Of a stretch of DNA of 64,000 nt, positions 10,470 to 34,500 are shown piece by piece. Source of the stretch: Ilex aquifolium (Eukaryota > Streptophyta > Magnoliopsida > Aquifoliales > Aquifoliaceae); the NCBI GenBank assembly GCA_951799425.1, contig OX637402.1, forward strand, positions 20,659,844 to 20,723,843, given 5' to 3'. The translations under genes were made by a program, and so were the position numbers. Positions within the stretch are counted from its first letter, which is position 1. Each line of letters opens with the position of its first letter. Under the pieces are notes generated by a model that saw nothing but the letters and a program-made list of their open reading frames with translations, searched no databases and was not told the DNA's origin.

Positions 10470-11483
10470 CTATTGGTAGCTTGCTCTGTACAACAAATTC
10501 CTTACCCAATATGGCTTTGAAGTGTTAGACAAGCTAAAGAATAAGTCCACCTTAACCGGATTAGAGGCAATTCTGTAACCAGCCTCATAGAGTAGATCCT
10601 CATCAAGCCACCCAATTTTCTCAAGCTCAGCAAAGATTCTTCTTCTCGATTTAGAAACATCTTGGGCATGGCCTACCCTATGTGCGATATTATCGAGCTT
10701 ACGACCACAAGTAGCAACATAATCACCTAAGACTCTGGTCATATCACCAAGCTACTTGCAATGACCTCGGCAGCTGTAGAAGCCTTTCTCTTCTTCATCT
10801 TTTTGGTAGTGGAGGTGTCAGTGGAAACATCCATGCCTTGAGTCATACTATGACTTGTGCCATTGGTCTCATTTTCATTTTTAATGCATGTCGGATCAAC
10901 TTCATGATGTGCATCCTCATTGTCATTCCCTCCAACCATGTCATCAAGATCCTTCGCAAATTCTCCTGATGCGCGATCCTTACCAAAAATAATTCTCCAA
11001 TCTTTGTTGTATGACCAACATTTTTCACTCATCCCCCTAGCCTGCTTATCCTTCTACAACAATTATACCACGAAAGATCATGTCTCGAATAAGTGGAGTA
11101 CTAAAAATAACAAAATACCTCTATTAATTAAAAAGTGGTATACCAGACCAAATTACCTTTAAATACTCCTCCCAAACATCATCAGAATCAACCTCGATTT
11201 TGTTATCAGTGTCATTTAACCCGAAGCCACTTGTGTTCATCATAGATAGTATACAATTATACTGCATCTTCCACATTTTTATCTTTGATTCGATGTGTGG
11301 TTGTGCACGAAGCATACTGCTGCCAATTCTTTGTTCTAGCATCTACAGATAACATGACATGAATGTACCATTAGGACACTTCAACCCTGCTGCACATAGA
11401 TCCTTCGGTGCATATAATAGTTGTGTCTCTTCTGCATTTGTCCATATTCGTCTGGTACCTTTTTCCACTTGAATACCACTCAT
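10470..11483 (-). pseudogene. Harbinger Myb/SANT-like DNA-binding protein (ORF1), two lesions
   Basis: In PIF/Harbinger elements this protein helps bring the transposase to the element's ends. ATG at 11483 opens a frame with RRIWTNAEE, DLCAAG and NGTF. A TAG stop lies at 11343-11345. The same frame then continues with RAQPHIESKIKMWKMQY, SGFGLNDT and DSDDVWEEYLK. A GT-AG intron (about 11054-11156) joins this to KDKQARGMSEKCWSYN and IFGKDRASGE. A one-base frameshift near 10745 moves the C-terminal helix (GHAQDVSKSRRRIFAELEKI) into another frame, ending at 10470. The protein was nearly full length before the two lesions. Confidence 0.8.
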
Positions 11484-11522: not shown

Positions 11523-11599
<77 letters not shown>

Positions 11600-11600
11600 A
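11502..11600. repeat. self-complementary (CA)n-(TA)n-(TG)n microsatellite
   Basis: A CA run is followed by a short GAGA spacer, a long TA run and a TG run. The CA and TG arms are complementary, so the tract could form a long hairpin. The Athila-type element inserted at its very end: the 5-bp target duplication GTGTA is its last five bases (11596-11600). Confidence 0.9.
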
Positions 11601-13439
11601 TGACTTGATCCGAAATGTATACACCCAAGTGCAGGCGGTCAAGTTGTAGTAATAATCTGGTTTGAGTCCAGAGTCGAATCCTCAGGGAACTATGGTTGGT
11701 GTTCTTTGAAGTAAATAGTGAGAAAGACTTGTAATTGGAAATATTATGATTTTGAAGTTGTGGGAAGTTTTGGATAGAATGTAAGATTCTTTCCAATGGG
11801 TATTTTGCTAGACAAAATATAAGATGATTAAATGTAACAAACACTCTTTGGTTCGGGAATCAGAATATGTAGTTGATTATCCGGTGCATTATGTTTATGC
11901 TTTATAACTCAATTAACTCCCGTGTCAACGGCAAATTAATCGGAAGATAGGAATGAAGTGCAATAATGGTGGACATTGAAAGTTTGTCATGAAGAGTTAG
12001 TTAGGGTACTTGCCTTGAATCAATGGATCTTTCCATGTAGGAGTCATCCATTTATCATAGAAAGATCCGTTGATTATACAAAGTACCTTTACTTTGCTAG
12101 GTGCATTCAATCACCCAAAAATCAAGTGGAGTATAGAACATTTAAGCATAAAGGTGATACACAAACATAATGTCCGGATTAATCTTTTACATATCTATCA
12201 TCCCTTCCCAAAGAGTGAATGAGGACTACTCACCCTTCATAGCTATGGTAAAGCTAGAATGATGAATGGTACTCATCCCCAAAAGGTGTTACAAAGTAAA
12301 ATGCTCAAGCACTAAAAGTGAAATGCTTTAAAGTAAAATAGCTAAACAAGGAGCCGATCTTCGACAAAGAATGAGTGAATCACGTTCCACCCTTCACGGC
12401 TTTGGTAAAGCTCTAGAAAAGTGGAAGAGTTTCACTCCTCTAAGGGGAAGAAGGAAGCTCCAACAATGGAAGTAAAAGAAAACAATACTTAAATTAAAAG
12501 AAAGCAATAAATACTTGGTGTTTAATCCACAACCAAGAGATGATAATACATAAAAGAAAACAACAACTTCTTGGTGTTTAATTCACAACCAAGATCTAAT
12601 AAAAAGAAAACAACAACTTCTTGGTGTTTAATCCACAACCAAGATATAATAAAAACATAAAAGAAAACAATAACTTCTTGGTGTTTAATTCACAACCAAG
12701 ATCTAAAACATAAAAGAAAACAATAACTTCTTGGTGTTTAATTCACAACCAAGATCTAAAACATAAAAGAAAACAATAACTTCTTGGTGTTTAATTCACA
12801 ACCAAGATCTAATAAAAAGAAAACAATAACTCAAGAAAGTAAATAAAGCAATAATACTTGAAAGATGATTCAAGAAAAAGATTCAAGACCTTTGGAGTGT
12901 TTTCCACTAGGAAGAAATGTTCTTTACAAGAAAAATGAAACAAGAGAAGGATGCCCATTACAAGCCCCCAAGGGGGGTATTTATAGGCATCCAAATTATA
13001 AATATCCTAAAAGATATTTATCCTAAAATATATTTAATTACAAATATCCTAAAAGATATTTATCCTAAAAGATATTTAATTACAAATATCCTAAAAGATA
13101 TTTATCCTAAAAGATATTTAATTACAAATATCCTAAAAGATATTTATCCTAAAAGATATTTAATTACAAATATCAAGAAGATCTTGATTTACACTTTGAT
13201 CTCCCTTTGTTTTGAGCTTTAATAATTTACACCCTATGCTTTGATAAGTTGCTCTCCATGCTTTGATAATTGGCTCCCGTCGTTTTGACGCATAAAAACC
13301 TGAAAAGAACAACATTCAATGCATTATCCTTAATTCACACATTAACCCTAATTAGATTTATTTTGACTAGTTTAACTTTATTTAATTACACAATTGACCT
13401 TTTAATTTAATTACATTTTGCATTAATTAGGGTTAATCA
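11601..13439 (-). repeat. 3' LTR of the Athila-type element
   Basis: This LTR is 1839 bp, with TGACTTGATC at the left and GGTTAATCA at the right in plus orientation. On the element's strand a TATA box (TATAAATA) lies at 12978-12985. It differs from the other LTR by one extra copy of a 42-bp unit (about 12994-13170) and a few substitutions. An array of about six ~50-60-bp units, each with the palindrome CTTGGTgtttaattcacAACCAAG, lies at about 12510-12812. Confidence 0.92.
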
Positions 13440-13452
13440 CACCCCCCAACCT
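13440..13452 (-). other. polypurine tract for plus-strand priming
   Basis: On the element's strand AGGTTGGGGGGTG lies directly against the first base of the 3' LTR, where the plus-strand primer of a gypsy element belongs. The same 13-mer occurs internally at 17779-17791. Confidence 0.85.
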
Positions 13453-14137
13453 AAACATTACTAGTCCCTAGTAATAAATAACAGCATAACAAAATCACTT
13501 TCGTAGATAACACGATTGCATTTAGCATATGCAATAAGCCGTTAAACCCCTAGGTGATTCCTAGTGGACGAGTTTTGTCTCGTGAAGGTTTTCAGTGAAG
13601 CTACCTACAAACTCCATTGTGAAAAAAAATGTGTATATGCATTAGCACCATGATAGTTGAATTTTTTTTTTTTTTTTTTTAGAACATAGAACACTTCTCT
13701 GTCATTGGTACGTAATATACGCAAAAATAAACACTTGTTATATTGGTATTTGAAATTCCCTATGTAGTAAGAATGATCATTCTAGCAACAAGAATTGTTA
13801 TATAACAAACACTCCACTTTACTACCTTCCATGGATAGCTTCGATTTCACAAACCTCTCGTAGAATGCTCTCAGCAAAAATTCACTCCGATTATAGTGAC
13901 TTGTCTCTCACGGGGCATGTGATCAGAAGGTGGCCAATCGAAAAATCACATGCACAATTAGGAAGGAAGTGAAGTTTACGGAAACAAACTAATCATGTTT
14001 GGCATAATCTCATGAAAGAATATTGATGCAATTTAAAGAAATACTATTTACCATACCCCAATTTTGATTAACAACACACACATGTAACAGACTTGAGATC
14101 AATTAGGGCTTTTCATAGGTTGTAGCGTGGCCAGAGG

Positions 14138-14285
14138 TCAGTGGCTAGGGCTGTTAATCGAGCTGAATTCGAGCTTTTGTCAAGCCTAATTTACACATAA
14201 ACGAGCTGGCTCGTTTAACAATTAACACATAAACGAGCCTTAAATAATGTTCAAGCTTGGCTTGATTAACAGCCCTATCAGTGGC
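14138..14285. mobile_element. 132-bp hAT-type MITE inside the Athila-type element
   Basis: The element is 14146-14277. Its ends, TAGGGCTGTTAATCGAGC and the inverted GCTTGATTAACAGCCCTA, are nearly perfect. It is flanked by a perfect 8-bp duplication TCAGTGGC (14138-14145 and 14278-14285). It has no coding capacity. Direct repeats of ACACATAAACGAGC lie inside. Confidence 0.85.
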
Positions 14286-15079
14286 TAATGAAATGACGTC
14301 AGAGGTTTTCAAAAGCTATCTTTTCATTCTGTAATGTAGCACACTTCTTTCTAGCTTTTCGACATTTTGCCAAGAAATGATTTCTTTTTTTTTTTTTTTT
14401 TTTTTTTCATTGATTCTCCTTATCATCGAAAAGTAATCTCCACAGTTTTCCCATTTCTTTGCATTTCTGTGTCATATTAATTAATAAGAGTGTGCAAGAA
14501 AATTAGATAGCAATGGTGTGTCCAGTATGTTTTCTTGTGGCTTGGTAAATATTTGGGTTTATCAAAGAAGAAATCATACTTTGAGGGCTCAAACATAGCT
14601 GACTAGGGAAATAATTTTGCAGAAAAAATGGCTAAGGCTCAATATCAAATCAAAGATGGCCTAAAATCCTTTCTCAAGTATGTGAACATGTATGTGTCGT
14701 ATGAACAGATTTCTTGGGGATATGTCAACAGATTACCTTAGTTGCGTCAATCAAAGCAAATTTAATGAGATTATTCAAAAATAGAGAATGAAAAACCTTA
14801 CTTGAATAAATGTTAATTATCTCTCAAAAGTATGATAAGGCTCAAAACTTACCATGGTATTCTTTATCATCTCCACTGGTAATGTCAGGTTTTTCATGGA
14901 ATGTCGGTTATATACCGATTCTATTTTTGAGTCTGGTCATTCTTTACCTTAAGAATAACAAATAGCAATATACATTTGACATTTAAGCATAGAGAAAATA
15001 CCATTTTTCAAGGAAGTGGTTTTTTTTTTTTTTTTTTTTTTTTTTAGAAAACAAGAAAAATAAAATTCAAAATTATAAA

Positions 15080-15341
15080 CATACTCATTTATCTATGAAA
15101 ATTGAAAGAAGACTAGATGCACCAATTAAACTTGAAAAACTATGGCGTCTCAGGATAAGTCCCTACCCACACTACAGGTTGGCATTTTAGGACATTCCTT
15201 ACTCCGCCCACATACTCATTTATCTATGAGAATTGAAAGAAGATAAAATGCACAAATTGAACTTGGAAATTTATGGCGTCTCAGGATCAAATCCCTACCT
15301 ACACTGTTAGTTGGTAGTTCGGGACGTTCCTTACTCGGCCC
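15080..15341. repeat. two tandem copies of a 131-bp unit
   Basis: The units start CATACTCATTTATCTATGA at 15080 and 15211. Each contains words (ATGGCGTCTCAGGAT, CCTTACTC, GCCCA) that match, in the same order, the DNA coding for the C-terminal GLSKDYPDTP region of the two basic Cys/His ORFs upstream. They may be remains of a further cassette copy. Confidence 0.55.
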
Positions 15342-15455
15342 ATATTTTTATTTCAACAACCAGACTTTGTACAAAAATATTTTACAAAAGAGTTCAGACC
15401 CTTAACCTTCATTCCAAAACACATTTTTCCACAGCTTTGTTTTTATAGTTAAAAT

Positions 15456-15881
15456 CTAATCCGAGTCATCGCTTGGATCTATGTCATTATCAGTGACCCT
15501 TCCAACTTCTTGTCGCACATAACTTGTAAGTCCCGGACTGGCATAAGATGGTGTGTCAGGATAATCCTTACTCAGCCCATACACTATCCAGTTTAATCGA
15601 TCGGTTGCACGACCCGAAATTGGTTCAGAACACTGATTATGTTTTTTCATATGAAATATCCTGCCACAATGGTAACAAGCACCCAGTCGTTTGGAACGAC
15701 GATGTTTAGCAAAATTGCTTCTGCCACACAATGGTTGTTGTTGTTTCTCTCGGATCTCAATTTTTCTCATATCCCTTGCTTTTCTCATTATCACAGCATG
15801 CACATCAGATGGGAAAATGCGTAGAACTCCTAGACTAAACCAAAAAAGTTTAGGATCCATGCTTGCTAAGACTAAAGACAT
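15456..15881 (-). CDS. accessory basic Cys/His protein, cassette copy B
   Basis: This 141-residue protein has unknown function. ATG is at 15881, in a context shared with copy A. The N-terminal part is hydrophobic (LFWFSLGVLRIFPSDVH), followed by a basic Arg/Lys stretch. The cluster RLGACYHCGRIFHMKKHNQC (about residues 67-86) fits Cx2Cx4Hx6C, with another Cys at about residue 52. Then come the invariant SEPISGRATDRLNWI, GLSKDYPDTP and an acidic tail. By eye about two thirds of residues match copy A without gaps over the first ~130 positions, which argues for selection on the protein. The layout, a helical FPxDV segment, a Lys/Arg block and a Cys cluster at the 3' end of the element, resembles the nucleic-acid-binding protein family of carlaviruses (Pfam Viral_NABP). 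I infer a nucleic-acid-binding role. Confidence 0.75.
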   Translation of the reverse strand: MSLVLASMDPKLFWFSLGVLRIFPSDVHAVIMRKARDMRKIEIREKQQQPLCGRSNFAKHRRSKRLGACYHCGRIFHMKKHNQCSEPISGRATDRLNWIVYGLSKDYPDTPSYASPGLTSYVRQEVGRVTDNDIDPSDDSD

Positions 15882-16423
15882 TCTATCTGGTTCTTTAACG
15901 TCTACCAGTCACAAAGACAGTTGAAGCTGCATCCGATGTAATCATGAAATACAGGTACAAATACTAAAAAAAACGCGATCCAAAAAAAATAAATTTTTTT
16001 TTTTTTTTTTTTTTTTTTTTCAGATCTAAAACTAAAATTACAAATACGAAACTAGAGAAAATATACCAAAATACAAGCGGAAGGAAGAAGATTTAGGATG
16101 AAACAAACAAATTAACGAAGAAGGAATAAACCCAGAATACATAGGATTGAGGAGGATTATTTGGCAAATTATCAGATCTTACTGTAACAGCAATTACAAC
16201 ATAGTCATTGGAGGGCATAGCAAATTCACAAGGAATCTTATAAAGACAAATAGCCATGAGAATCACAAGCTGTAGATATCAAATTTCAAATATATATATA
16301 AATGAAATTACAAACAAGCAATACTTACAACACTAGCACTAGTGGGCTAGTGGAGATAAGGTTGTAAGGTACAGATCTGTTCATCTGCCGAAACCTACAA
16401 ACAAAATACAACAATTACTCAAC

Positions 16424-16555
16424 TCAAGGAATATCTGGGTTTCTCTGGAAACTCCTCATCCTAAGTGTGAGAACACAAAGAGCACCCAGGTACACATACA
16501 AACATATAAGACAAATTATTAAACAAAAGACTGGATCGTCGGCGTATATGGTCAT
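16424..16555 (-). CDS. 43-residue one-span membrane peptide, cassette copy B
   Basis: This ORF starts at ATG 16555 and ends at TGA 16424-16426. It has a short acidic start (MTIYADDP), about 25 hydrophobic residues rich in Cys, Leu and Ile, then a basic Arg-containing tail ending NPDIP. It matches the 48-residue ORF of copy A in size, in the DDP start, in the hydrophobic span, in the NPDxP end and in its distance from a TATA-like box (about 153 nt here, 150 nt in copy A). Function is unknown. Alone it would be a weak call; the matching pair makes it credible. Confidence 0.6.
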   Translation of the reverse strand: MTIYADDPVFCLIICLICLYVYLGALCVLTLRMRSFQRNPDIP

Positions 16556-16707
16556 GGATTTACAGGGGGTGAGTTGTTTTTACAGAGAACAGAAAGAACG
16601 ACGACGAAGAAGAAGAGAAGAAAAAGAAAGAGAAGAAGATAAGGGAAAGAGAAAAGGGGGGAACCAACACCGGTGATGGTGGAAGAAAAAGAAAAAGGTG
16701 GAAGGCC

Positions 16708-16714
16708 TAATAAA
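16708..16714 (-). promoter_or_regulatory. TATA-like box of cassette copy B
   Basis: On the minus strand TGCCTTTATTAGGCC is followed by about 110 nt of C/T-rich leader (a plant Y-patch-like stretch) and then the membrane-peptide ORF. Copy A has TGCCTTTATAAGGC at the same distance. It is a candidate internal promoter. Confidence 0.45.
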
Positions 16715-17152
16715 GGCATTCCTCAGATTTTTGTTTTTTTTTTTTTTGTTTTTTTTTGTTTTTTTTTTTTTTTTTTAATATAAGAAAGTGTCGGCAGGAG
16801 CTGGCAGGCAGAAGAAAAGAAAAAAAAGAAGAAGAAAGGCAGTGGGAGGCCCCCCCCCTTTTTTTTTCTAACTTTACTTTCGGCAGTGTCGGCAGGCGCA
16901 ATAATAGCAGCAGGCGCAATAATGGTGCATAGTAATAAAAATGAGTAGGGTAAGAGAACACCTCGCACTTGAGCTTTGACTCATGCACCAATATCTGAAT
17001 CTAGGAACAACAAAATTATACAACAAAAGAAAGTGATATGCAAAAGAGTTTGTACAGAACATAAAAAAATAAAATAAAATAAAATAAAATAAAATTTACA
17101 GACTCGGACCTTCAGCTCTCATTCCCAACCTCAGTACACTTTTTCACAGAGG

Positions 17153-17584
17153 TCAATCCGATTCCCCCTCCGTATCTGTGTAAAATGGACAACTAGTAAC
17201 TCTCCCAACTTCCTCTCTCACAAATCGGTTAAGCACAGTACCGGAATAGCATGGCGTATCAGGGTAATCCTTACTCAGCCCATGTTTTATCCAGTTTAAT
17301 CGATCGGTTGCGCGACCGGAAATTGGTTCAGAACATTTGTTGTATCTTTTCTCATGAAAGTATCTGCCACACTGTTTACAGGCACCAAGTCGTGTAGCAC
17401 GACGACGTTTAGAATAACTGCTTCGGCCACAGAGGGGTTTCGCTTGTTTTTCTTTGATTTCAGCCTTCCTTACTAATCTTGCTTTTCTCATGATCATGGT
17501 ATGTACATCAGATGGAAAAGTACGTAGGACTCCTAGACTAAACCAAAAAAGATTTACATCCATGATTGATACTCTATGACCCAT
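17153..17584 (-). CDS. accessory basic Cys/His protein, cassette copy A
   Basis: This 143-residue paralogue of the protein at 15456-15881 starts at ATG 17584. Key parts are LFWFSLGVLRTFPSDVH, a basic stretch ending CGRSSYSKRRRATRLGAC, and the Cys/His cluster ACKQCGRYFHEKRYNKC (Cx2Cx4Hx6C). SEPISGRATDRLNWI, GLSKDYPDTP and an acidic C-terminus follow. The DNA just before the start (a CTTTGTGACTGG word) is shared with copy B and preceded in both by an AG that could be a splice acceptor. It lies 323 nt after the membrane-peptide ORF. No standard Athila gag, pol or env-like domain fits it. I infer RNA or DNA binding from charge and cysteines only. Confidence 0.78.
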   Translation of the reverse strand: MGHRVSIMDVNLFWFSLGVLRTFPSDVHTMIMRKARLVRKAEIKEKQAKPLCGRSSYSKRRRATRLGACKQCGRYFHEKRYNKCSEPISGRATDRLNWIKHGLSKDYPDTPCYSGTVLNRFVREEVGRVTSCPFYTDTEGESD

Positions 17585-17778
17585 TATCTGGTTTTTTTAC
17601 GTCTTCCAGTCACAAAGACGATCAAAACTGACCCACAGATATTATCATTAATACAAGGTACATAATATGAACAGATACAACAATAAAAACAAAAAAAATT
17701 TACAGAAAATTTTACGGGTTCAACCTGCGCAGATCAACTACTGTAAACTGCAGATCAACTATTGTAAACTGTAGATCT

Positions 17779-17791
17779 CACCCCCCAACCT
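17779..17791 (-). other. internal copy of the polypurine tract
   Basis: AGGTTGGGGGGTG occurs here exactly as at the 3' LTR junction. It follows a GGGGACAATGTTCAGTCT word of the kind often found after pol in Athila elements. It may be a second plus-strand priming site, or a mark of the ancestral end of the element. Confidence 0.55.
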
Positions 17792-17906
17792 AGACTGAAC
17801 ATTGTCCCCAATGTTTCGAGTTTTTCGGTTTGTAGAGCTTGAATACGCAGTTAACTGTGGAGATCTGTTCAATCGCCGATGACCTATACCAAAAAAAAAA
17901 CAGAGA

Positions 17907-18053
17907 TTAAGCATCTTTGGGGTGGTCTGGGTTTTCATTGGGACAAAAACCCTTGATCATCAGTGCGGCCCGAAGAAGAACAGCCATAAGTAAATAATAC
18001 AAACAAATGTAGATCATGAGAAGGAGGATAGGGTCATCGAAAAATGCAGACAT
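17907..18053 (-). CDS. 48-residue one-span membrane peptide, cassette copy A
   Basis: ATG at 18053 (context CAGTACCATG) opens MSAFFDDPILLLMIYICLYY, continues hydrophobic for about 25 residues, then has basic residues and ends PNENPDHPKDA. The N-terminal DDP, single span and NPDxP end recur in copy B. It is the first ORF after the TATA-like box at 18203-18209. Function is unknown; I infer a small single-pass membrane peptide. Confidence 0.62.
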   Translation of the reverse strand: MSAFFDDPILLLMIYICLYYLLMAVLLRAALMIKGFCPNENPDHPKDA

Positions 18054-18202
18054 GGTACTGTTATGGGTTGGATCGTGGTACAGAAGACCAGATGCAGTGG
18101 AGAAGAAGAAGAAAAGAGAAGAAGCAGAAGAAGAAAAAGAAAAGAAAAGAGTAAAGGTGTGGTGAGGAAAAGAAAAAAAAGAAAAAAAAAGCGATGGGAG
18201 CC

Positions 18203-18209
18203 TTATAAA
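18203..18209 (-). promoter_or_regulatory. TATA-like box overlapping the gag-pol stop codon
   Basis: The minus strand reads CTGCCTTTATAAGGC, where TAA is the stop codon of the polyprotein and TATAAG a good TATA box. About 120 nt of C/T-rich leader and the first cassette ORF follow. The candidate promoter would let the accessory genes be expressed without the 5' LTR. Confidence 0.5.
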
Positions 18210-21200
18210 GGCAGTCCATCGTGTCGGGTGTCTGACTGACCCGACCCTTTTTTGTGTCGGCAAGCGTAATCTCCGGAGTGATTTCCGGAGATACTTTCTG
18301 GATCCATAAAAAAAATGGTCTCCACATTTTGGACAAAATTCTCCACAAAGGGTTTTAATCGCTGACCATTGACGGTAAAAATGTTACCGTTTGATGGGTT
18401 CTCCACTTCCACTGCCCCATGTTCAAATACCTTTTTAACAATGTATGGTCCAGTCCATCTTGATTTCAACTTACCAGGAAATAGGCGAAGTCTCGAATTG
18501 AAAAGTAGAACTTTTTGATCAGGTTCAAAAGATTTTCGCACTATGTTCTTGTCATGAAAAATTTTCATCCTGGTTTTTGCAATCTTAGCATTTTCATATG
18601 CTTCATTTCTCAATTCCTCCAATTCATTAATCTGAAGCTTCCGTGACAGTCCAGCCTTGTCTAAGTCAAAATTCATTGCTTTAATAGCCCAGTATGCCCT
18701 ATGTTCCAATTCCACAGGCAAGTGACATGGCTTTCCATAGACTAATCGATAGGGAGACATGCCCAAAATTGTTTTAAAAGCAGTTCGGTATGCCCAGAGC
18801 GCATCAGTTAGTCTTAATGACCAATCTTTGCGATCTGGGTTCACCGTTTTTTCCAAAATTAATTTGATCTCCCGATTAGCTAACTCAGCTTGTCCACTGG
18901 TCTGTGGATGATAAGGGGTTGCAATTTTGTGAAAAATCAAGTATTTTTTCATTAAATTCCAGAAGGGACGATTGCAAAAATGAGAACCCCCATCACTTAT
19001 AATGGATTTTGGAATTCCAAACCGAGATAAAATATTTTCTTTTAAAAACTTGATCACCGTTTGATGATCATTATTTCGGCATGGAATTGCTTCAACCCAT
19101 TTGGATACATAGTCTACGGCTACTAAAATGTATAGATAGCCAAAGGAGGGGGGAAATGGTCCCATAAAATCGATACCCCAACAGTCAAAAATTTCGATCA
19201 CCAAAATTGGGTTTAAGGGCATCATGTTTCTTTTTGAAATGTTTCCCAACCTTTGACATCTATCGCAAGTTACGCAAAAAGCATGGACATCTTGGAAAAG
19301 TGTGGGCCAGTAAAATCCACACTGCAAGATTTTTGCAGCGGTTTTTCGAGATGAAAAATGACCACCGCATGCTTCTGAATGACAAAATGTTATTACCTGT
19401 CTACTTTCCTGAGCGGGGATGCAACGTCTTATGATCTGATCCTTACAGTACTTGAATACGTAGGGATCTTCCCAAAAGAAATTGCGGACCTCCCTCAGAA
19501 ACTTCTTTTTGTCCATGGGAGTGAAAAATGGAGGAAGTGTTCCGGTAGCAAGGAAATTAGCAATATCAGCGTACCATGGGGTTTCATCAATCCTGAATAG
19601 TTGTTCATCGGGGAATTTTTCATTGATTGGCAGTCCATCCTCATGAAATTCATAAGTTAATCTTGACAGATGATCTGCCACCACATTTTCCACACCCTTT
19701 TTGTCCTTAATGACTAAATCAAATTCTTGGAGCAAAAGGATCCATCTCAAGAGCCTTGGTTTGGCATCTTTTTTTGTAAGCAAAAATTTCAGTGCTGCAT
19801 GGTCAGTAAATACAGTAACAGAAGAACCAACCAGATAAGATCGAAATTTTTCCAATGCAAATACTACAGCAAGTAATTCCTTTTCAGTTGTTGAGTAATT
19901 CATTTGGGCATCATTTAAAGTTTTACTTGCATAGTAAATCACATGTGGCTTCTTATCTTTTCTTTGTCCCAAAACAGCACCTACAGCATAGTCACTAGCA
20001 TCACACATCAATTCAAAGGGTAGAGTCCAGTCAGGAGGTTGCATTATTGGGGCAGAAATTAACATGCCTTTGAGTTTGTCAAAGGATTTTTGGCACGCTT
20101 CATTCCAGTCAAAAATGACATCCTGACTCAAAAGATGACACATAGGTTTTGCTATGGTGCTGAAGTCTTTTATGAACCTTCTGTAGAATCCTGCATGACC
20201 TAAGAATGATCGAACATCCTTTACAACCCTAGGAGCAGGAAGATTCCTTATCAAATCAATTTTTGCTTTATCAACTTTCATGCCTTCAGACGACACAATG
20301 TGACCCAAGACAATGCCTTGATTCACCATGAAATGACATTTCTCCCAGTTAAGCACCAGATTTGCCTCTTTGCATCTCATCAAAACTTTTTCTAGGTTAG
20401 CTAGACACAAATCAAATGAGTCACCATATACCGAGAAATCATCCATGAAAATTTCCAAAAAATTTTCGACCATGTCACTGAACAAGCTCAGCATACATCT
20501 TTGAAATGTTGCAGGAGCGTTACAAAGTCCGAATGGCATCCTTTTGAATGCAAAGGTGCCAAATGGACATGTGAATGTGGTCTTTTCTTGGTCATTCAGA
20601 GCTATCTCAATTTGATTGTATCCGGAATACCCATCCAGGAAACAGTAAAATTCATGGCCTGCTATTCTCTCGAGGACTTGGTCAAGGAAGGGAAGAGGAA
20701 AATGGTCTTTTCTAGTCACCAGATTGAGTTTTCGATAGTCAATGCACATTCGCCATCCTGTGACGACTCGTGTTGGCACGAGTTCATTTGCATCATTTTT
20801 GACTACTGTGACTCCAGATTTCTTTGGTACAACTTGGGTTGGACTAACCCATTTGCTATCGGAGATAGGAAAAATTATCCCTGCATCCAGGAGTTTGAGC
20901 ACTTCCAGTCTCACAACCTCTTTCATGTGAGGATTCAATCGTCGCTGCATTTGACGAGAGGGTTTTGAGTCCTCTTCAAGGTATATGGCATGATTACAAA
21001 TTAACGGGCTTATACCTTTCAAATCAGCGATGGTCCACCCAATGGTGCTTTTGTGACTTTTAAGAACTTCAATTAATTGAGCTTCTTGCAAGTCTGTGAT
21101 TTTTGAAGAAATTACCACTGGGTAAGATTTATCCTCACCTAAAAATGCATACTTGAGATCAGATGGGAGCGGTTTCAGTTCAGGCTTTGGTGGCCTGTCA

Positions 21201-23803
21201 CTTGAAGATAGTGGTTTTGTACCACTTGATGAAATTTCTTCAAATTTAGGAGCCCATGTCCCCACATTGAAGGTAGGACACTCAATGGAGTTTTGTTCCA
21301 GAGAGTCAGATGAGTCAGATTTTGACAAAGTTGATTCACTAAGATCCTCACAGAATGAGTCATTCAGATGTGCTTGTATTAATGACTCAATGAAATTTAT
21401 TTCTCCTACCTCCTCGTACTCTCTTGGGTGTTTTGCAATGTCAAAGACGTTCATTTCGAGAGTCATATCCCCAAAAGTCAATTTCATAATACCATTCCTG
21501 CAATTGATTAGTGCATTGGAGGTTGCTAGAAAAGGTCGACCAAGAATGACAGGAATTGGAGTTTCTGAATGAACTTCTGGATGAGTATCTAGAACAATGA
21601 AGTCTACAGGGAAGACAAAATTATCCACTTGAACAAGTACATCTTCAACAATACCCCTAGGAATTTTTACAGATCTATCTGCCAATTGGAGTGTGGTGCA
21701 AGTGGGTTTCAGTTCACCTAAACCCAACTGCTGGTAGACAGAGAAAGGAAGCAAGTTGACACTAGCTCCAAGGTCTAACAATGCTTGCTCAATTTTGAAA
21801 TTTCCAATGACACATGACACAGTGGGACACCCTGGATCTTCGCACTTTGAAGGGATTTTGTGTTGAAGTAGGGCACTGGCTTGCTCTGTGAGGAAGGCTC
21901 TTTTTTGAACATTTTGGCTTCTTTTGACTGTGCACAAGTCTTTTAGAAACTTGGCATAAGCTGGAACCTGTTGGATTGCATCCAGAAGTGGGATGTTGAT
22001 TTTTACTTGCTTGAAAAGCTCGTAAATTTCAGACTGATTGTTTGCTTTCTGTATGCTCTTGAGTCTATGAGGGAAAGGAGCAGGAATAGAACACGAGGGT
22101 TCTTCTTCCCTTGATGGCTCTGGTTCTTGTTCAATCATGGGATCACAGTCATTTTTTTTTTCAAGTTCTGGCTCACTTAATGGGTTGGCTGGAATTGAGA
22201 CTGGTTTTGGGTCTGGAATCAGCATGTTTCTGATGGACTTGTCAATCTTTTTGCCACTTCTCAATGTGGTGACAGTTTTGGCTTGGTCTTGTGGAGTTTC
22301 CATAGTTGATGGATTTCCCACCTGAAATTGGCCTTGTGGAGGCTTTGGTTGGGCAGGAAATTTTCCCTTCTCATGTGTGCTCATGGACTGGGTCAGCTTT
22401 TGAATGTGGCCTTTGAGATCCTCAAAAGATTGTGTGGTCTGGGCCTTGAAATCAATAAAAGCCTGAGTAGAACTATTGTTATAGCTCATTTGGGTTTGCA
22501 TGAATTGATTCAATGTATCTTCAAGGTTCCTTTTGTGTGGTGGTTGATATGGAGGATATTGTGGAGGTCCTTGAGGTGGTTGTGGTGGCCCTTGTGGATG
22601 AGGATATTGTGGAGGTCCTTGAGGTGGTTGTTGTGGACTTTGTTGCTGATTCATGGGGGTTGGTTGTGTGTTTCTCCAACTGAAATTTGGGTGGTTCCGC
22701 CACCCTGGATTGTATGTTTCAGAGTATGGGTTGGAGTAAGGCTTGTTGAAATTGGAAATGGCATTTGTTTGTTCCAACAAAACTTCTTTGAATGCCGGAA
22801 TGGTCGGGCATTCCCCAGTAGGATGCCCTGTTAGTGCACAAATCCCACACACTTGTTCTGTGGGAGGGACAACATCAACTTGATGGACCTTTTTCATCTC
22901 TAAAGCTTCAAGCTTTCGAGACAAAGTGGACATTTTTGCTCTAAGATCATCATCTTCTCTCAAGACATACTTACCCCCTTGGAAAGTAGGTGGTTTGGCT
23001 TCTACAGTGGTAGGAGATGCTGAGTCCCACATTTGAGAACTGTCAGATATGGTATCAAAAAAATTGAATGCCTCCTCCGGACTTTTTCCCATGAACTCTC
23101 CTTGAGCCATCATTTCGACAAACTGTCGTAACCTAGTGGGCAAGGAGTCATAGAAAAATCCTACCAAAGTCCAATTTTCAAAAGCATGGTGTGGACAAGA
23201 TTGGAGAAGATCTTTGAATCTCTCCCAGCTTTGATAAAAAGTTTCCCCTTCTTTGATCGAAAAATTCATGATTTGTCTTTTGAGTGTATTAGTGCGGTGC
23301 AGAGGAAAGAATTTTCTGAAAAATTCATTCTGTAGAGCCTGCCAATTAGGGATTGAAAGAGATTTTAAAGAATGTAACCATTGTTTGGCTTTATCCCTCA
23401 AAGAGAAAGAAAACAATTTCATTTTTGTCAATTCAGAATTGTCTTGAAATGTTCCACACACTTCTTCGAAGTCTTTGATATGCAGATACGGATTTTCTGC
23501 ATCTGATCCATGAAACACGGGCAATAACTGCACTGTCCCCGGCTTTACAGTAAAGAGGGGAGCATTTTCAGGAAAAATAAAACAAGAGGGGACACTATTC
23601 CTTGTGGGATGTAAGTAATCTCGCAATGTTCGAATGTTGGGTACTTCCCCCTCTCTCACATGATCTTCACCCTGCCTGTCAATATTTGCCATATTGAAGT
23701 TACAAGAATCGGCTTCTGATTTGGGTGAAAGTGGTTCAAGTTGATTTACAGACCCAGAAGATTCAGCAGGCAAATTTTGAAAGAGGCGATTGGTGTCAGT
23801 CAT
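18203..23803 (-). CDS. gag-pol polyprotein of the Athila-type retrotransposon, intact
   Basis: One open frame of 1866 codons encodes particle, protease, reverse transcriptase and integrase. Gag occupies about residues 60-340. It has a Pro/Gln-rich tract at about 390-425 and a zinc knuckle [14 protein letters not shown] (Cx2Cx4Hx4C) near 318-331. The protease has [12 protein letters not shown] near 676, with Leu where most families have Ser or Thr, as is usual in Athila. RT has [11 protein letters not shown] and the FMDDFSVYG catalytic box near 1119. RNase H starts [12 protein letters not shown] near 1266. Integrase has an HHCC finger near 1470-1515 and a DDE core (WGIDFMGPF near 1546, IISDGGSHF near 1605, Glu in QTSGQAE near 1640). 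No stop or frameshift was seen. The last residues before the stop overlap the cassette promoter. Confidence 0.95.
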
Positions 23804-23904
23804 AAAACAAAATTATTCACAATAAGGCAAAAATATAAACAAAAAGAGAGGTTTTTTTTTTTTTTTTTTTTTCACTTTTTTCTAAAAAAAACACATTTTA
23901 TGAT

Positions 23905-23922
23905 TCCCCGGCAACGGCGCCA
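23905..23922 (-). other. primer-binding site, tRNA-Asp type
   Basis: On the element's strand TGGCGCCGTTGCCGGGGA follows the 5' LTR after a short spacer. It is complementary to the 3' end expected of plant tRNA-Asp (GTC) with CCA added, the primer usual for Athila elements. Confidence 0.88.
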
Positions 23923-23928
23923 AAAACT

Positions 23929-25725
23929 TGACTTGGTCCGAAATGTATACACCCAAGTGCAGGCGGTCAAGTTGTAGTAATAATCTGGTTTGAGTCCAGA
24001 GTCGAATCCTCAGGGAACTATGGTTGGTGTTCTTTGAAGTAAATAGTGAGAAAGACTTGTAATTGGAAATATTATGATTTTGAAGTTGTGGGAAGTTTTG
24101 GATAGAATGTAAGATTCTTTCCAATGGGTATTTTGCTAGACAAAATATAAGATGATTAAATGTAACAAACACTCTTTGGTTCGGGAATCAGAATATGTAG
24201 TTGATTATCCGGTGCATTATGTTTATGCTTTATAACTCAATTAACTCCCGTGTCAACGGCAAATTAATCGGAAGATAGGAATGAAGTGCAATAATGGTGG
24301 ACATTGAAAGTTTGTCATGAAGAGTTAGTTAGGGTACTTGCCTTGAATCAATGGATCTTTCCATGTAGGAGTCATCCATTTATCATAGAAAGATCCGTTG
24401 ATTATACAAAGTACCTTTACTTTGCTAGGTGCATTCAATCACCCAAAAATCAAGTGGAGTATAGAACATTTAAGCATAAAGGTGATACACAAACATAATG
24501 TCCGGATTAATCTTTTACATATCTATCATCCCTTCCCAAAGAGTGAATGAGGACTACTCACCCTTCATAGCTATGGTAAAGCTAGAATGATGAATGGTAC
24601 TCATCCCCAAAAGGTGTTACAAAGTAAAATGCTCAAGCACTAAAAGTGAAATGCTTTAAAGTAAAATAGCTAAACAAGGAGCCGATCTTCGACAAAGAAT
24701 GAGTGAATCACGTTCCACCCTTCACGGCTTTGGTAAAGCTCTAGAAAAGTGGAAGAGTTTCACTCCTCTAAGGGGAAGAAGGAAGCTCCAACAATGGAAG
24801 TAAAAGAAAACAATACTTAAATTAAAAGAAAGCAATAAATACTTGGTGTTTAATCCACAACCAAGAGATGATAATACATAAAAGAAAACAACAACTTCTT
24901 GGTGTTTAATTCACAACCAAGATCTAATAAAAAGAAAACAACAACTTCTTGGTGTTTAATCCACAACCAAGATATAATAAAAACATAAAAGAAAACAATA
25001 ACTTCTTGGTGTTTAATTCACAACCAAGATCTAAAACATAAAAGAAAACAATAACTTCTTGGTGTTTAATTCACAACCAAGATCTAAAACATAAAAGAAA
25101 ACAATAACTTCTTGGTGTTTAATTCACAACCAAGATCTAATAAAAAGAAAACAATAACTCAAGAAAGTAAATAAAGCAATAATACTTGAAAGATGATTCA
25201 AGAAAAAGATTCAAGACCTTTGGAGTGTTTTCCACTAGGAAGAAATGTTCTTTACAAGAAAAATGAAACAAGAGAAGGATGCCCATTACAAGCCCCCAAG
25301 GGGGGTATTTATAGGCATCCAAATTACAAATATCCTAAAAGATATTTATCCTAAAAGATATTTAATTACAAATATCCTAAAAGATATTTATCCTAAAAGA
25401 TATTTAATTACAAATATCCTAAAAGATATTTATCCTAAAAGATATTTAATTACAAATATCAAGAAGATCTTGATTTACACTTTGATCTCCCTTTGTTTTG
25501 AGCTTTAATAATTTACACCCTATGCTTTGATAAGTTGCTCTCCATGCTTTGATAATTGGCTCCCGTCGTTTTGACGCATAAAAACCTGAAAAGAACAACA
25601 TTCAATGCATTATCCTTAATTCACACATTAACCCTAATTAGATTTATTTTGACTAGTTTAACTTTATTTAATTACACAATTGACCTTTTAATTTAATTAC
25701 ATTTTGCATTAATTAGGGTTAATCA
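23929..25725 (-). repeat. 5' LTR of the Athila-type element
   Basis: This LTR is 1797 bp, with TGACTTGGTC at the left and GGTTAATCA at the right in plus orientation. The TATA box TATAAATA on the element's strand is at 25306-25313. It has three copies of the 42-bp unit ending ATTTAATTAC, where the other LTR has four. The CTTGGT/ACCAAG palindromic unit array lies at about 24841-25140. Confidence 0.92.
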
Positions 25726-25950
25726 GTGTATCAATGTAAAGTGAATATGCAATGTAAAATCAATTACAATACGACAAATGTGAAATATGTAGCATAATAA
25801 CACCACAAAATAAATTGTATTCCTTAAGATTCAGGACAACCATTAATCAAAGTAGAAGAAGTACCAATAACACATTACAAACATATCCACCATTTAATCT
25901 ATTAATTGAATGTCGCAAAATAACCCCCTCCCCCCCCCCCCCCCCCCAAT

Positions 25951-27355
25951 TCATCTACCCATCTGCCATGCGTCGTACATTTCATTCGCCAACTGATTTC
26001 TCCAAGTAGTCCACGCAGTAGAGGTCTCAACACTGTCAACTACATTGGTGTTGGTATTGTCATCGTCCTCATTAAGAACATACTCAGGTATGTGGTCTTC
26101 CAATGGGTCAACTGACATCTCATTTCTAATGAAATTATGTAACAGACAACAAGCAACAATAATTCTGTTATATGTGGTGACAGGGTAGAAACGGGCAGTT
26201 CAAAGGATTGCCCATCGCATCTTGAGGAGAGCAAAACACCTCGCAATAACATTCTTGACAGAGGAATGTTTTAGGTTGAAATATTCATCAGCATTATGAG
26301 GAGCTGCCCTTCCACTTTCAAATTCGTCAAGATGGTATTGTTGACCCCTAAAATGAGCTAAGAAACCCTCATCATTGGTGTACCCAACATCACATAAATA
26401 ATATGTGTCTGTCGTAATTGTGCATATACCCATTAGTACACAATTTCCACAAAATAAAAAATGCAATAAAAATTTCCACTATAGCTTACCCCGTTGAACA
26501 CGTAACACAGTACGTCTTGTAACTGCGTCGCGAAGGACTCTTGAATCTGTCGTCGATCCCTCCCAACCAGACAAAATATAAATGATTCACATGTCAGACG
26601 CACATACTCCTAACACATTTGTTGCAATTTGCCCCTTCCTTGTCCTATATCTTGCTTGGTGCACAAGTGACACTTTTGCTCTAATGTGAGTGTCATCTAA
26701 AGCCCCAACACAGTTCTATACAATAGGAAATAAACATATTATCAACTGATATTTTGCTAACTACATACGATACTACATGACATGACAACTCAAAGGTGGA
26801 TATACTTTAAAAAAACTCTCAATATCTTAAAAAACTTTCACTTACGGTCAGTGCATTCATTTGTGATTGGATCAGGGACTGCAAGCAGTAATCGACATAG
26901 CCTAAGAACTGCCAAAAACACTGCATTGAAATACTTGCTAACCGTCTCACCGGATCTAATGAAACTAAATTTGACTGGTCTATTCTTATGATCATGACTA
27001 ATAATGCTCAAGAACATAGCTACCATATCTTCAATGCTAACATTCCTTGTACGACTGAGCCCACCAACCTATTCAACTAGTGTGCACAATATAGAAAAAC
27101 ATCGTTTGTCCATCCTAAGTTGATTGTAGCATGTTATATCACATTTACCTATCAATCTATTAAGATGCTCTATTTACAGTCGGGTTCACGTGAGCTTGGG
27201 ATCCTATTGTTGTTTTCAATTTCATGAAATTCCAGCAAATTTGCAATCACAGCAATCAGGCATGAGCATATCATAACTATATCATAGATGACACTATCCA
27301 AAACAACCACCAATGGCACACTGAGATCATTGTCTTCATCCATAACAACTACCAC
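25951..27355 (-). pseudogene. PIF/Harbinger transposase (DDE_Tnp_4 type), decayed
   Basis: The minus-strand pieces follow family order. An N-terminus with MDEDND starts at 27343-27355. Next come RNVSIEDMVAMFLSIISHDH, GALDDTHI with the first catalytic Asp, YRTRKGQIATNVLGVC, an intron (about 26421-26489, GT-AG), and YYLCDVGYTNDEGFLAHFRG. Then come NVIARCFALLKMRWAIL, and the end YDAWQMGR with the stop at 25951. The third catalytic residue, Glu in the family ERxFGxLK motif, is Ala here (GCG). Several stops interrupt the N-terminal half. The copy is therefore not a working transposase. Confidence 0.85.
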
Positions 27356-31515: not shown

Positions 31516-34500
31516 TGTGGGGACCAATCACATACTGCCGGTCGGCACTTGCATGGACCAAGCATGAGCTGCCCGTTGACACTTGCAAGGACCAAGCATG
31601 TGTTGTCGGTCGACACTTGTAAGGACCAGGCATCTCCTGTCGGTCAGCGCCTACCTAGGAGAGCCACTGCCACTCAGCAGCCTCTTGGGCGAGGGTTTGC
31701 CAGTCGACACTAGTTCACAAAGGGTCCTTACACAAGCCTACTTGCAACCACTAAGCCTCAACTACTCAGCTACCTCCTTGCTACCTGAGTTGCTAAGAGT
31801 TCCCTTGTCCATCTTCGCTAGGAGACACCTACTCAGCTAAGAACCAACCAAGGACTTAGAGTCCTAGTATAACTCTACTCCGAGTATCAATGGACTAGTG
31901 ATAAGGCTAACAACGCCTCTTGGCAAGCACATCTCTTCCTTCAATCTAGGACCTAGTATCCTAGTGCAATTCTACCTCGAATAACCAGGAGCCGGTGATG
32001 AGGATTGAGGACCAAAAGTCCTAGTCTAACTCGGCTCTGAATTTCTGGGACCTGGTGATGAGGTTGAGCCAATCAACCTCGAGTTCAGGTTCCTTTGGGA
32101 CATATTGATTAACCATAATTAATGCATAATTTAATTAAGTTAATAAGACAATTGTGTTAGTTAAACAAAGTTAAACTAGTCAAAATAAGTCGAATTAGGG
32201 TTAGTGTGTGAATTAGGGATAATGCATTAATTATTGTTCTTTTCAGGGTTTTGTGCGTCAAAGCTACAAATTACTGGGGAGCCAATTATCAAAGCTACAA
32301 ACTATAGGGTGCCAATTATTAAAGCTCAAAACAAAGGGGGATCAAAGTGTAATTCAAATGACATCTTCTAAGGGCTTGTAAAGAGCATCTTTTGGTTGCC
32401 TATAAATACCCACCCCTTGGGTCTTGTAAAGATCATCTTTTCTATTGTATCATTTTCTTGTAAAGAGCACATTTTGGTTGTGGAAAACCCTCCAAGTAGT
32501 TATTGTTTTCTTTACTTTCTTGTATTATGGTTTTCTTTTACTTCCATTGTTGAGCTTCCTTCTTCTCTTAGAGGAGTGAAACTCTTCCACTTTTCTAAAG
32601 CTTTACCAAAGCCGTGAATGGTGGAACGTGATTCACTCATTCTTTGTCGAAGATCGGCTCCTTGTGTAATTTATTTTTACCTTGTAATGTCTCTACTTGG
32701 AGGGATGGGTATCACTTACTTTTCTAGCTTTACCAAAGCAATGAAGAGTGAGTAGTTTTTCATTCACTCTTTAGCAAAAGGCGATTGACATGTATAAATT
32801 ATCTTGAAGTTATATTGGTGCATTTCATTTATGCTTATCTCCAATCTTCATTTCTTCATTATGTCTCTTTACATTATGTCTTTCTTGCTTAGCATGAGTA
32901 GCTAGATTTTTAAGTTGGCTAATCCAAGGGAGACCTCCTCTTGGGTGTGTCATTTCAACTCATTTTCTTTCCTGCTCTCAGAGTATGATGGTTCGGTTTG
33001 ACTGGGTTGAGAGTGGATGCGGTTGTGAGTCTTTGATATCCCGTAGGCCTAGTCACGGGTTATGCTTGGATCCTCACCTCCATTTCGTCCCTAACTTCCC
33101 ACGAATCAATCGTTCATCTAAGCTCTATTCGAGGAATGTTTCGAGTTGATTTGGGATTCCCATTGGAATGAACCCTTCGGATTAGCCAACATTTATTTTT
33201 ATTTCATTTTCATTAAGAACACTATCACAAACCAAACTCAAAACTCAAAAGATTTTACATTTTCCTTTTCTTTCACAAAATCACATTCACACACTTGAAC
33301 TTTCCTTCCCTGAGGAGACGGCCTTAGAATACTTTTTCAAGTAAAACACAACAAGCAAAAGACTCCTTGCGCTTGGGGTGCACTTTTGTTCACACATATC
33401 ATTTCCACACATATTTTGTTCACTTCATTCATCCACCATTCCGTTGCCCTATTTCCCACATCATTCCAAGGGAGAGTGACACTCTTTTCACACATAAGTC
33501 ATATATACATTGATGGATGATATTAGGAGGTTAGGAACAACAACGGTTTTGATCAAGCACATATCTCCCTACCACTATAAATAAAGGCCCTGAGTACCAG
33601 GTAAGGCATTCAATCTGAGCCTATTCACTCTATACTTTTCTTCGACTAGCTTACTGACTTAAACATCGAAGTCCATTTGGTTACTTCCAGCTATCGGTTC
33701 ACATAGGTGTTCTCTTATCTTGCAAGTTCAGTAAGACTCCTTCACCACCCTCTCCATTCATACAAGGTGGTGGCTTTCTATGTGAAATTATTCCCGCACA
33801 ATTGGCGCCGTCTGTCGGAAGCGACTAAGTTTTCTACCAATGAAGAAGCCTTGAATCATGTCCGCGCGAGAGAGCCCTCGTCCCAGGAACCAGCCACGAC
33901 ACTTCCACTGCCTCCAATCCTTGAAGATCCCACTAACTATGACCTCCAATTATCAGAGAACGTACTACTCTATTATTGACAGAAGCACTCTAAAAAAAGA
34001 CCTCATTCTCATCGCAACCTACCTACCATTGGTGTAGAAGGTGGGTTAGCTATTGAGATGGTTTACCATGAGGCAATAAGGAAGAAGACGGAGGAGTTAG
34101 AAGCCCTCAAGCAAGGGCTCCTTCTCCAAAGGGGCAATAAACTTGCTAGTCAGGTCATACGCTCGCCTCGTCAAAGTGACCACCACAACAATCACTCACA
34201 TGAGGCTCAATCCACCTGTCACAGTAACAGGTTGCTGGCAAGGAGCTATTCAACCCATGATAAGTGTTAAGACAAATATTCACCAAGACGCAATAATTTT
34301 CAGCGCTTTCCTAGGGACCCTTCACCCAGACGACACCCTCCTCGTCATATCTAGAGGGGAGGGGAGTCGCATAGGGAACGCCGCCCTAGGGAGCGTAGAG
34401 AAAGGCACGGGAGTTCAACCTGTCACTCTACACGAGATGATTGGTACAACAATTATAGAAGAACGAAACATAGGCGCTTTGAACCAGCCCGTGAAGTGGT

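What the first reader, a model, noticed from the sequence alone, without database searches (positions are those of the whole stretch)
15456..18210. Duplicated two-gene accessory cassette in an intact Athila-type retrotransposon
Between pol and the 3' LTR the element carries two copies of the same module: TATA-like box, C/T-rich leader, a 48- or 43-residue one-span membrane peptide, then a 143- or 141-residue basic Cys/His protein. TATA-to-ATG spacing is 150 and 153 nt. The larger proteins match at about two thirds of positions with no gaps, while the non-coding parts are largely unalignable by eye. That suggests selection on the proteins. Standard Athila elements have gag-pol and sometimes an env-like ORF; I know of no description of this pair. 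The arrangement of a small membrane protein followed by a basic Cys-rich protein recalls accessory genes of plant RNA viruses, but that is inference.
Basis: partly seen in the sequence, partly recalled or inferred. Interest (0 to 1): 0.87.

Follow-up and report, generated by a model that had tools for sequence, protein, structure and literature searches.

The report
Plant retrotransposon with RNA-virus-type genes
A young plant jumping gene carries two diverged copies of a gene otherwise known from plant RNA viruses, where relatives of it help fight host gene silencing, so the element may have captured a virus's counter-defence tool and kept two versions of it.

Summary
The window contains an intact, very young Athila-type Ty3/gypsy element (11601-25725, minus strand): LTRs with 1 mismatch in 1797 aligned sites, a 5-bp target duplication and an open 1866-aa gag-pol. 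Downstream of pol lie two homologous modules, each with a one-span membrane peptide (48/43 aa) and a basic Cys/His protein (143/141 aa). The larger proteins are homologues of plant RNA-virus nucleic-acid-binding proteins: PF05515 Viral_NABP E 7e-11 and 1.3e-12, plus PF01623 Carla_C4, all above curated cut-offs; reversed controls list no family. dN/dS between the copies is 0.34 (bootstrap 0.18-0.53). They fall into two paralogue groups that recur in metagenomic proteins, so the duplication predates this insertion. The peptides are probably real but less certain, without known relatives. Ten literature searches listed no report of an NABP in a retrotransposon. Best reading: a flexivirus-type NABP captured, duplicated and kept as a nuclear zinc-finger factor that counters silencing or activates transcription. 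Homology and selection are shown; capture direction and function are inferred. The host genome could not be searched.

The parts
23929..25725 (-). 5' LTR (1797 bp)
   Evidence: 1 mismatch in 1797 aligned sites to the 3' LTR; TG...CA ends
11601..13439 (-). 3' LTR (1839 bp; one extra 42-nt internal repeat unit)
11596..11600 (.). target-site duplication GTGTA (partner 25726-25730)
   Evidence: read directly; the left copy adjoins a TG-microsatellite
23905..23922 (-). primer binding site TGGCGCCGTTGCCGGGGA
   Evidence: match to the tRNA-Asp 3' end is recalled, not tested
18203..23803 (-). gag-pol single ORF, 1866 aa (gag, protease, RT, RNase H, integrase)
   Evidence: seven Pfam families at E <= 0.01; no chromodomain or aRH-type second RNase H listed
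18201..18209 (-). module A start: TATA-like TTTATAAGG overlapping the pol stop codon
18054..18200 (-). module A C/T-rich leader
17907..18053 (-). peptide A, 48 aa, one hydrophobic span
   Evidence: Kyte-Doolittle 2.75 over 19 residues
17779..17790 (-). internal PPT-like GGTTGGGGGGTG inside module A (second copy of the PPT at the 3' LTR)
   Evidence: the exact 12-mer occurs twice in the window
17585..17650 (-). conserved non-coding block directly 5' of NABP-A
17153..17584 (-). NABP-A, 143 aa, viral nucleic-acid-binding protein homologue, CX2CX4HX6C
16706..16714 (-). module B start: TTTATTAGG (copy of the pol end)
16424..16555 (-). peptide B, 43 aa, one hydrophobic span
   Evidence: Kyte-Doolittle 2.82
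15882..15945 (-). conserved non-coding block directly 5' of NABP-B
15456..15881 (-). NABP-B, 141 aa, viral nucleic-acid-binding protein homologue, CX2CX4HX6C
15189..15348 (-). two short possible relics of the NABP core (15328-15348 and 15189-15216)
   Evidence: blastn E 0.001 and 0.005, weak; the shuffle control there used a stricter cut-off (1e-4) and does not test them
13440..13451 (-). polypurine tract GGTTGGGGGGTG next to the 3' LTR

Best explanation
An ancestor of this Athila-type retrotransposon acquired the nucleic-acid-binding protein (NABP, also called Cys-rich protein) of a flexivirus-like plant RNA virus next to its polypurine tract. The block from the end of pol to the NABP was duplicated, and both copies were kept and diverged into two paralogue lines. 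The proteins most likely act in the nucleus through a basic cluster (KRRR / KHRRSKR) a few residues before a CX2CX4HX6C zinc finger. There they would bind RNA or DNA, weaken host silencing of the element and/or raise its transcription, as viral homologues do. The small membrane peptide would be a helper at the ER or plasmodesma. Shown: intactness, youth, homology, paralogy, purifying selection on the larger proteins. Inferred: direction of capture, capture route, nuclear action, anti-silencing role, expression of the peptide.
For: PF05515 Viral_NABP and PF01623 Carla_C4 above gathering cut-offs for both proteins, E 1.3e-12 to 5.4e-5, and matched at E <= 0.01 by 13 of 13 members of the alignment, which includes the two window proteins; reversed sequences: 0 families listed. 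The match is colinear over about 110 residues (A 15-124 to profile 109-221; B 5-113 to 100-210). dN/dS 0.34, bootstrap 0.18-0.53 from 200 resamples. A-type and B-type split with 100/100 support in a 14-row tree (91/81 with the truncated P0013 included); A and B of this element as sisters rejected, AU p 7.7e-57. Cys72, His77 and Cys84 invariant and Cys69 nearly so in 13 sequences. Viral CRPs are described as silencing suppressors with an NLS and a zinc finger, and one as a transcription factor (passages of PMC12172455; PMC10335701); that these CRPs fall in PF05515 is recalled, apart from the Pfam descriptions.
Against: No viral sequence could be aligned directly: the protein database, viral contigs and genome contigs gave none, so the link rests on Pfam profiles. 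Structure prediction failed (mean pLDDT 47.8). Direction of transfer untested. No transcript data. One DNA copy only: the host genome search did not complete. Weak zinc-ribbon matches exist too (PF12172 E 0.14, PF13913 E 0.11, below cut-off; PDB eL43/L37Ae E 0.005-0.02). A viral CRP without suppressor activity exists (Shallot virus X, stated in PMC10335701). The metagenomic relatives have unknown hosts and could come from one plant. The helper role of the peptide has no support beyond its hydrophobic span.
Confidence: 0.6

Rival explanations
1. The gene went the other way: an old plant or retrotransposon zinc-finger gene was taken up by the ancestor of carla-, allexi- and mandariviruses.
For: The gene is maintained as two old paralogue lines in the element family. 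In mandariviruses it is a 3'-terminal accessory gene partly overlapping the coat protein gene (passages of PMC12172455).
Against: The name-giving Pfam families are described as viral, and CRPs are spread over two virus families (passages); relatives found here, 13 in 5.8 billion proteins, are few and close to each other. That database showed no virus protein, so it cannot weigh viral diversity.
Confidence: 0.2
2. The larger protein is a zinc-ribbon derived from a host ribosomal protein (eL43/L37Ae type) or from the element's own gag zinc knuckle, and its viral resemblance is convergent.
For: PDB hits to L37Ae/eL43 at E 0.005-0.02; one metagenomic relative was named ribosomal protein L37AE/L43A by its source. 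Gag has its own CX2CX4HX4C knuckle at residue 319.
Against: No ribosomal Pfam family was listed (HMMER's filters drop most matches above about E 0.1), against 7e-11 and 1.3e-12 for the viral family over about 110 colinear residues. The knuckle spacing differs from gag (X6 against X4).
Confidence: 0.07
3. The NABPs are real but the small peptides are not: the stretch is a 5' leader or intron, and the NABP is made from a spliced RNA that skips it. (Compatible with the NABP part of the best explanation.)
For: A T-rich tract ending in TAG followed by a shared exon-like patch lies 3' of both peptide ORFs. The peptide stretch is T-rich (0.36-0.37); codon-position differences are nearly even, 20/18/23 of 43, NG86 gives dN 0.64 and dS 1.33 on few sites, YN00 gave no value. 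Identical residues in the ungapped part are 9, 6 and 9 in the three frames, so by identity the ORF frame does not stand out. No homologue.
Against: In that part only the ORF frame has no stop in either copy, and its BLOSUM62 sum is 47 against -10 and 13 (stops count as mismatches); alignment score 64 against 25.2 +/- 5.0, 0 of 2000 shuffles, and at most 44 against the two other equally hydrophobic ORFs; hydrophobicity at the peptides' level in only 4 of 145 ORFs of 40-60 aa, two of them these.
Confidence: 0.4
4. The modules are passengers: decaying captured DNA carried by a young element, without function.
For: GAG-POL proteins are considered sufficient for transposition (abstract of PMC7264820). 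One metagenomic B-like relative, P0013, has lost the zinc-finger core.
Against: dN/dS 0.34 between copies with dS 0.75, both frames open after that divergence; 12 of 13 relatives keep the domain.
Confidence: 0.08

Closest known systems
Viral_NABP (PF05515) / Carla_C4 (PF01623): Cys-rich proteins of carlaviruses and, as recalled, allexiviruses and mandariviruses
   Same: Same Pfam domains over about 110 residues, basic cluster before a Cys/His finger, small size.
   Different: Sits in a DNA retroelement; two diverged paralogues in one element; no coat protein family among the five 3' ORFs scanned; mandarivirus CRPs are 223 aa, these 141-143.
Athila clade of plant Ty3/gypsy retrotransposons
   Same: Single gag-pol, no chromodomain or aRH listed by Pfam, long non-coding 3' region, extra ORFs 3' of pol (feature of most OTA elements in PMC6317226 passages).
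   Different: No Athila ORF-1 or transposase domain listed for the five 3' ORFs scanned; the extra ORFs are short, paired, duplicated and of virus type.
aORFs / env-like ORFs of plant LTR retrotransposons (e.g. sunflower Athila 14, 70-aa one-span ORF)
   Same: Extra ORFs next to gag-pol in an Athila element; small one-span membrane peptide (passages of PMC11728184).
   Different: The sunflower ORF is marked (-) and matched no known domain; no NABP partner is mentioned in the passages seen.
Animal LTR elements with env genes taken from viruses (e.g. C. elegans Cer elements with a phlebovirus-type env; recalled, no call)
   Same: An LTR element that took a gene from an unrelated virus.
   Different: There the gene is an envelope gene in animals; here a nucleic-acid-binding accessory gene in a plant.

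Membership tests
Viral_NABP / Carla_C4 protein family | Match to the curated profile above its cut-off | tested here: met
   A 42.9 and B 48.7 bits against cut-off 23 (PF05515); 26.3 and 23.5 against 20.9 (PF01623); 13 of 13 alignment members match both at E <= 0.01
Viral_NABP / Carla_C4 protein family | Basic NLS-like cluster and zinc finger (as described for CRPs in PMC12172455 passages) | tested here: met
   KRRR / KHRRSKR before CX2CX4HX6C; pI of residues 8-105 is 10.7 and 10.6; sequence only, viral spacing not compared
Viral_NABP / Carla_C4 protein family | Encoded by a flexuous plant RNA virus beside the coat protein gene | tested here: not met
   Encoded in an LTR retrotransposon; so a homologue of the protein family, not a virus
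Viral_NABP / Carla_C4 protein family | Silencing suppression or transcription activation | not testable with these tools
   needs a bench assay
Athila retrotransposons | Ty3/gypsy gag-pol without chromodomain and without aRH | tested here: met
   gag, protease, RT, RNase H, integrase; neither extra domain listed at E <= 0.01
Athila retrotransposons | Position in an RT/RH/INT tree with Athila references | not tested
   no reference domain set was at hand
Athila retrotransposons | LTRs, 5-bp TSD, PBS and PPT | tested here: met
   general LTR-element features, not specific to Athila
Small hydrophobic movement proteins of plant viruses (TGB3-like) | One membrane span in a small protein | tested here: met
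   hydropathy only
Small hydrophobic movement proteins of plant viruses (TGB3-like) | Sequence match to a TGB or movement-protein profile | tested here: not met
   peptide A no family; peptide B DUF3481 E 0.0083 and DUF4519 E 1.1, both below cut-off

The most novel reading that the evidence does not exclude
A plant LTR retrotransposon lineage took a silencing-suppressor gene together with a small membrane gene from RNA-virus stock, duplicated the pair, and now runs two specialised counter-defence proteins (for instance one against RNA silencing and one against transcriptional silencing, or one acting as activator). That would be a virus-type accessory gene set in a plant retroelement, comparable in role to retroviral accessory genes.
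Probability: 0.3. Interest if true: 0.93.

Novelty: new variant of a known kind. Interest (0 to 1): 0.8.

Why it matters
The origin and function of extra ORFs in plant LTR retrotransposons are open. The review PMC7264820 (abstract, the first of three parts and section 7 seen) says of antisense extra ORFs that a lack of similarity to other TEs or viruses speaks against such an origin and that the origin of most is unknown. Here a sense extra ORF has a clear viral homologue whose relatives are studied silencing suppressors, so a function can be tested directly. It would also link RNA viruses and plant retroelements by gene exchange, and it suggests that surveys limited to ORFs of 250 codons or more (PMC6317226 passages) have missed small accessory genes.

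Tried and rejected
Host-genome copies: the genome search 'own' was sent ten times and never answered, so copy number, frame conservation in other copies and empty sites remain unknown. Viral relatives: the alignment search of the protein database (13 hits, none from a virus by what is shown), viral contigs (22 pattern matches, 0 confirmed) and genome contigs (55 pattern matches, 0 confirmed) gave no virus record; gag-pol in viral contigs gave nothing. Fold: AlphaFold2 model too poor (mean pLDDT 47.8), so no fold search was made. Peptide relatives: none (a 48-residue query offers few words). dN/dS: YN00 failed for the NABPs and gave no value for the peptides; NG86, LWL85 and ML were used for the NABPs. 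Third NABP copy downstream: only two short weak matches, and the shuffle control of that call (0 of 50 at E <= 1e-4) was set stricter than the matches themselves. Poly(A) relics of viral RNA: rejected as an origin marker, because 7 of 7 homopolymers of 14 or more in the element are A-runs on its sense strand, including one in the gag leader. Ribosomal-protein origin: weak PDB hits, no Pfam support. tRNA scan of the window: 0 genes. Literature: 10 of 10 searches used (one search was about function; two searches listed 20 of 23 and 20 of 100 papers). No listed title or abstract start reports an NABP in a retrotransposon; unlisted papers, subscription journals and preprints are not excluded.
Full report
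What was checked. The four reported ORFs are present on the minus strand: peptide A 17907-18053 (48 aa), NABP-A 17153-17584 (143 aa), peptide B 16424-16555 (43 aa), NABP-B 15456-15881 (141 aa). They lie between the end of gag-pol (18203) and the 3' LTR (13439) of an element running from 25725 down to 11601. The LTRs align over 1797 sites with one mismatch and one 42-nt gap; the target duplication is GTGTA; a PBS and a PPT are in place. At rates of 6.5e-9 to 1.3e-8 per site and year (recalled), one mismatch means about 21 to 43 thousand years, with a Poisson upper bound near 240 thousand at the slower rate. Gag-pol is one 1866-aa ORF with gag, protease, RT, RNase H and integrase domains and no chromodomain or aRH listed. 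This fits Athila, but no tree with reference elements was made.

The larger proteins. Both match PF05515 Viral_NABP (E 7.3e-11 and 1.3e-12; 42.9 and 48.7 bits, cut-off 23) and PF01623 Carla_C4 (26.3 and 23.5 bits, cut-off 20.9). The only other families listed for them are zinc-ribbon or zinc-finger models below cut-off (PF12172 E 0.14; PF13913 E 0.11). Reversed copies list nothing up to E 10, with the reservation that HMMER's filters drop most weak matches. A search of 5.8 billion proteins gave 11 relatives with one sequence and 13, the same 11 included, with the alignment; sources are given as ENA or JGI, without host names. Twelve of the 13 match PF05515 and PF01623; P0013, a truncated protein, does not. 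In the alignment of 13 proteins Cys72, His77 and Cys84 are invariant and Cys69 nearly so, a few residues after an Arg/Lys-rich stretch. The spacing is CX2CX4HX6C, unlike the CX2CX4HX4C knuckle of the element's own gag.

Two old lines, under selection. NABP-A and NABP-B share 92 of 141 residues. NG86 gives dN 0.254, dS 0.749, ratio 0.34 (95% of 200 bootstraps 0.18-0.53); ML gives 0.23/0.91; LWL85 0.25/0.57; YN00 failed. In a 14-row tree without P0013 the A-type (window A, P0001-P0005, P0011) separates from the seven other rows (window B, P0006-P0010, P0012) with 100/100 support; with P0013 included the support is 91/81. Holding A and B of this element together is rejected (AU p 7.7e-57). So the duplication predates the split of these sequences, and both lines have been kept. 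The hosts of the relatives are unknown, so no age in years can be given.

The small peptides. They share 14 of 43 positions. Their alignment score of 64 is above all 2000 shuffles (mean 25.2, s.d. 5.0) and above the best score, 44, against the two other ORFs of like hydrophobicity. In the ungapped part only the ORF frame lacks stops in both, with a BLOSUM62 sum of 47 against -10 and 13 in the other frames; but identical residues are 9, 6 and 9, so by identity alone the frame does not stand out. Nucleotide identity there is 56 of 108. Hydrophobicity at the level of the weaker peptide (2.75 over 19 residues) is reached by 4 of 145 ORFs of 40-60 aa in the window, two of them these. Against: differences by codon position are nearly even (20/18/23 of 43), NG86 dN/dS is 0.64/1.33 on few sites, base composition is T-rich, and no homologue was found (short queries are poorly served by that search). 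I hold the peptides to be probably real, not certain.

Anatomy of the module. Modules A and B are homologous from the last codons of pol onwards, so the TATA-like motif of A overlaps the pol stop and that of B is its copy, TTTATTAGG. Over the NABP and its 5' flank the DNA aligns at 390 of 514. Parts of the C/T-rich leader, a T-rich tract ending in TAG with a shared patch after it, and the stretch just before the NABP ATG are alignable; the C/T-rich match may be composition alone. Module A holds a second copy of the polypurine tract (exact 12-mer GGTTGGGGGGTG at 17779-17790 and 13440-13451, two occurrences in the window); in B the matching place is not recognisable. This fits an insertion of NABP DNA between an old PPT and the LTR, for instance by template switching during reverse transcription, but that route is inference. 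Met8 is invariant in the alignment, and 9 of 13 relatives start there, so translation may begin at that Met.

Mechanism. Passages of PMC12172455 state that mandarivirus CRPs have an NLS and a zinc finger, that one suppresses local silencing, that Sweet potato chlorotic fleck virus NaBp suppresses local and systemic silencing, and that Chrysanthemum virus B p12 is a weak suppressor and a eukaryotic transcription factor. Passages of PMC10335701 state that allexivirus CRP is a suppressor and can be confined to the nucleus, and that the Shallot virus X CRP lacks the activity. By homology the element's proteins most likely bind nucleic acid in the nucleus and protect or activate the element. Two diverged copies suggest division of labour. 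None of this was tested here.

Known or not. PMC6317226 (passages) predicted extra ORFs only from 250 codons upward, so ORFs of this size could not appear; the passages name plant mobile domain, Transposase_28 and Athila ORF-1 as the prominent domains; its additional file 4 was not seen. PMC7264820 (abstract, first of three parts, section 7) reviews sense and antisense extra ORFs; in the parts seen no virus-type NABP is mentioned. PMC11728184 (passages) describes sunflower Athila extra ORFs without such a domain. PMC3136472 (passages) reports a betaflexivirus replicase-like sequence in cucumber; 'nucleic acid binding' occurs 0 times. PMC11359110 (passages) has 0 occurrences of carlavirus, flexivir and allexivirus. 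Exact-name searches for Viral_NABP and PF05515 found 0 papers. Subscription journals and preprints are not covered, and Pfam's own species list, not seen here, may already contain plant proteins. I file it as a new variant of a known kind: an LTR element with extra ORFs, where the extra ORF is a plant RNA-virus-type NABP, duplicated and selected.

Limits. One DNA copy; no host genome; no direct viral alignment; no usable structure; no expression data.

Noticed in passing
window 11124-11342 and 26200-26433: The element seems to sit inside a PIF/Harbinger-like DNA transposon: DDE_Tnp_4 (E 1.3e-6, above cut-off) on one side and a weak Myb/SANT-like match (E 0.0008, below cut-off) on the other, both minus strand.
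   Followed up: partly
window 17779-17790: Second, internal copy of the polypurine tract inside module A; could act as a central PPT.
   Followed up: partly
window 13662-23872: 7 of 7 homopolymers of 14 or more in the element are A-runs on its sense strand, one in the gag leader (23852-23872); outside the element the 4 runs are three A and one T on the + strand. Unexplained.
   Followed up: no
window 32106-32665: Remnant of a related LTR in inverse orientation, two pieces 82% and 90% identical to parts of the element's LTR; tblastn of gag-pol and NABPs found nothing beside it in the window.
   Followed up: partly
window 12492-12882 and 24820-25210: Tandem repeat of about 53 nt inside each LTR, plus a 42-nt repeat that differs by one unit between the LTRs.
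   Followed up: no
window 15079-15287: 78-nt direct repeat pair (88%) downstream of NABP-B, next to weak relics of the NABP core.
   Followed up: partly
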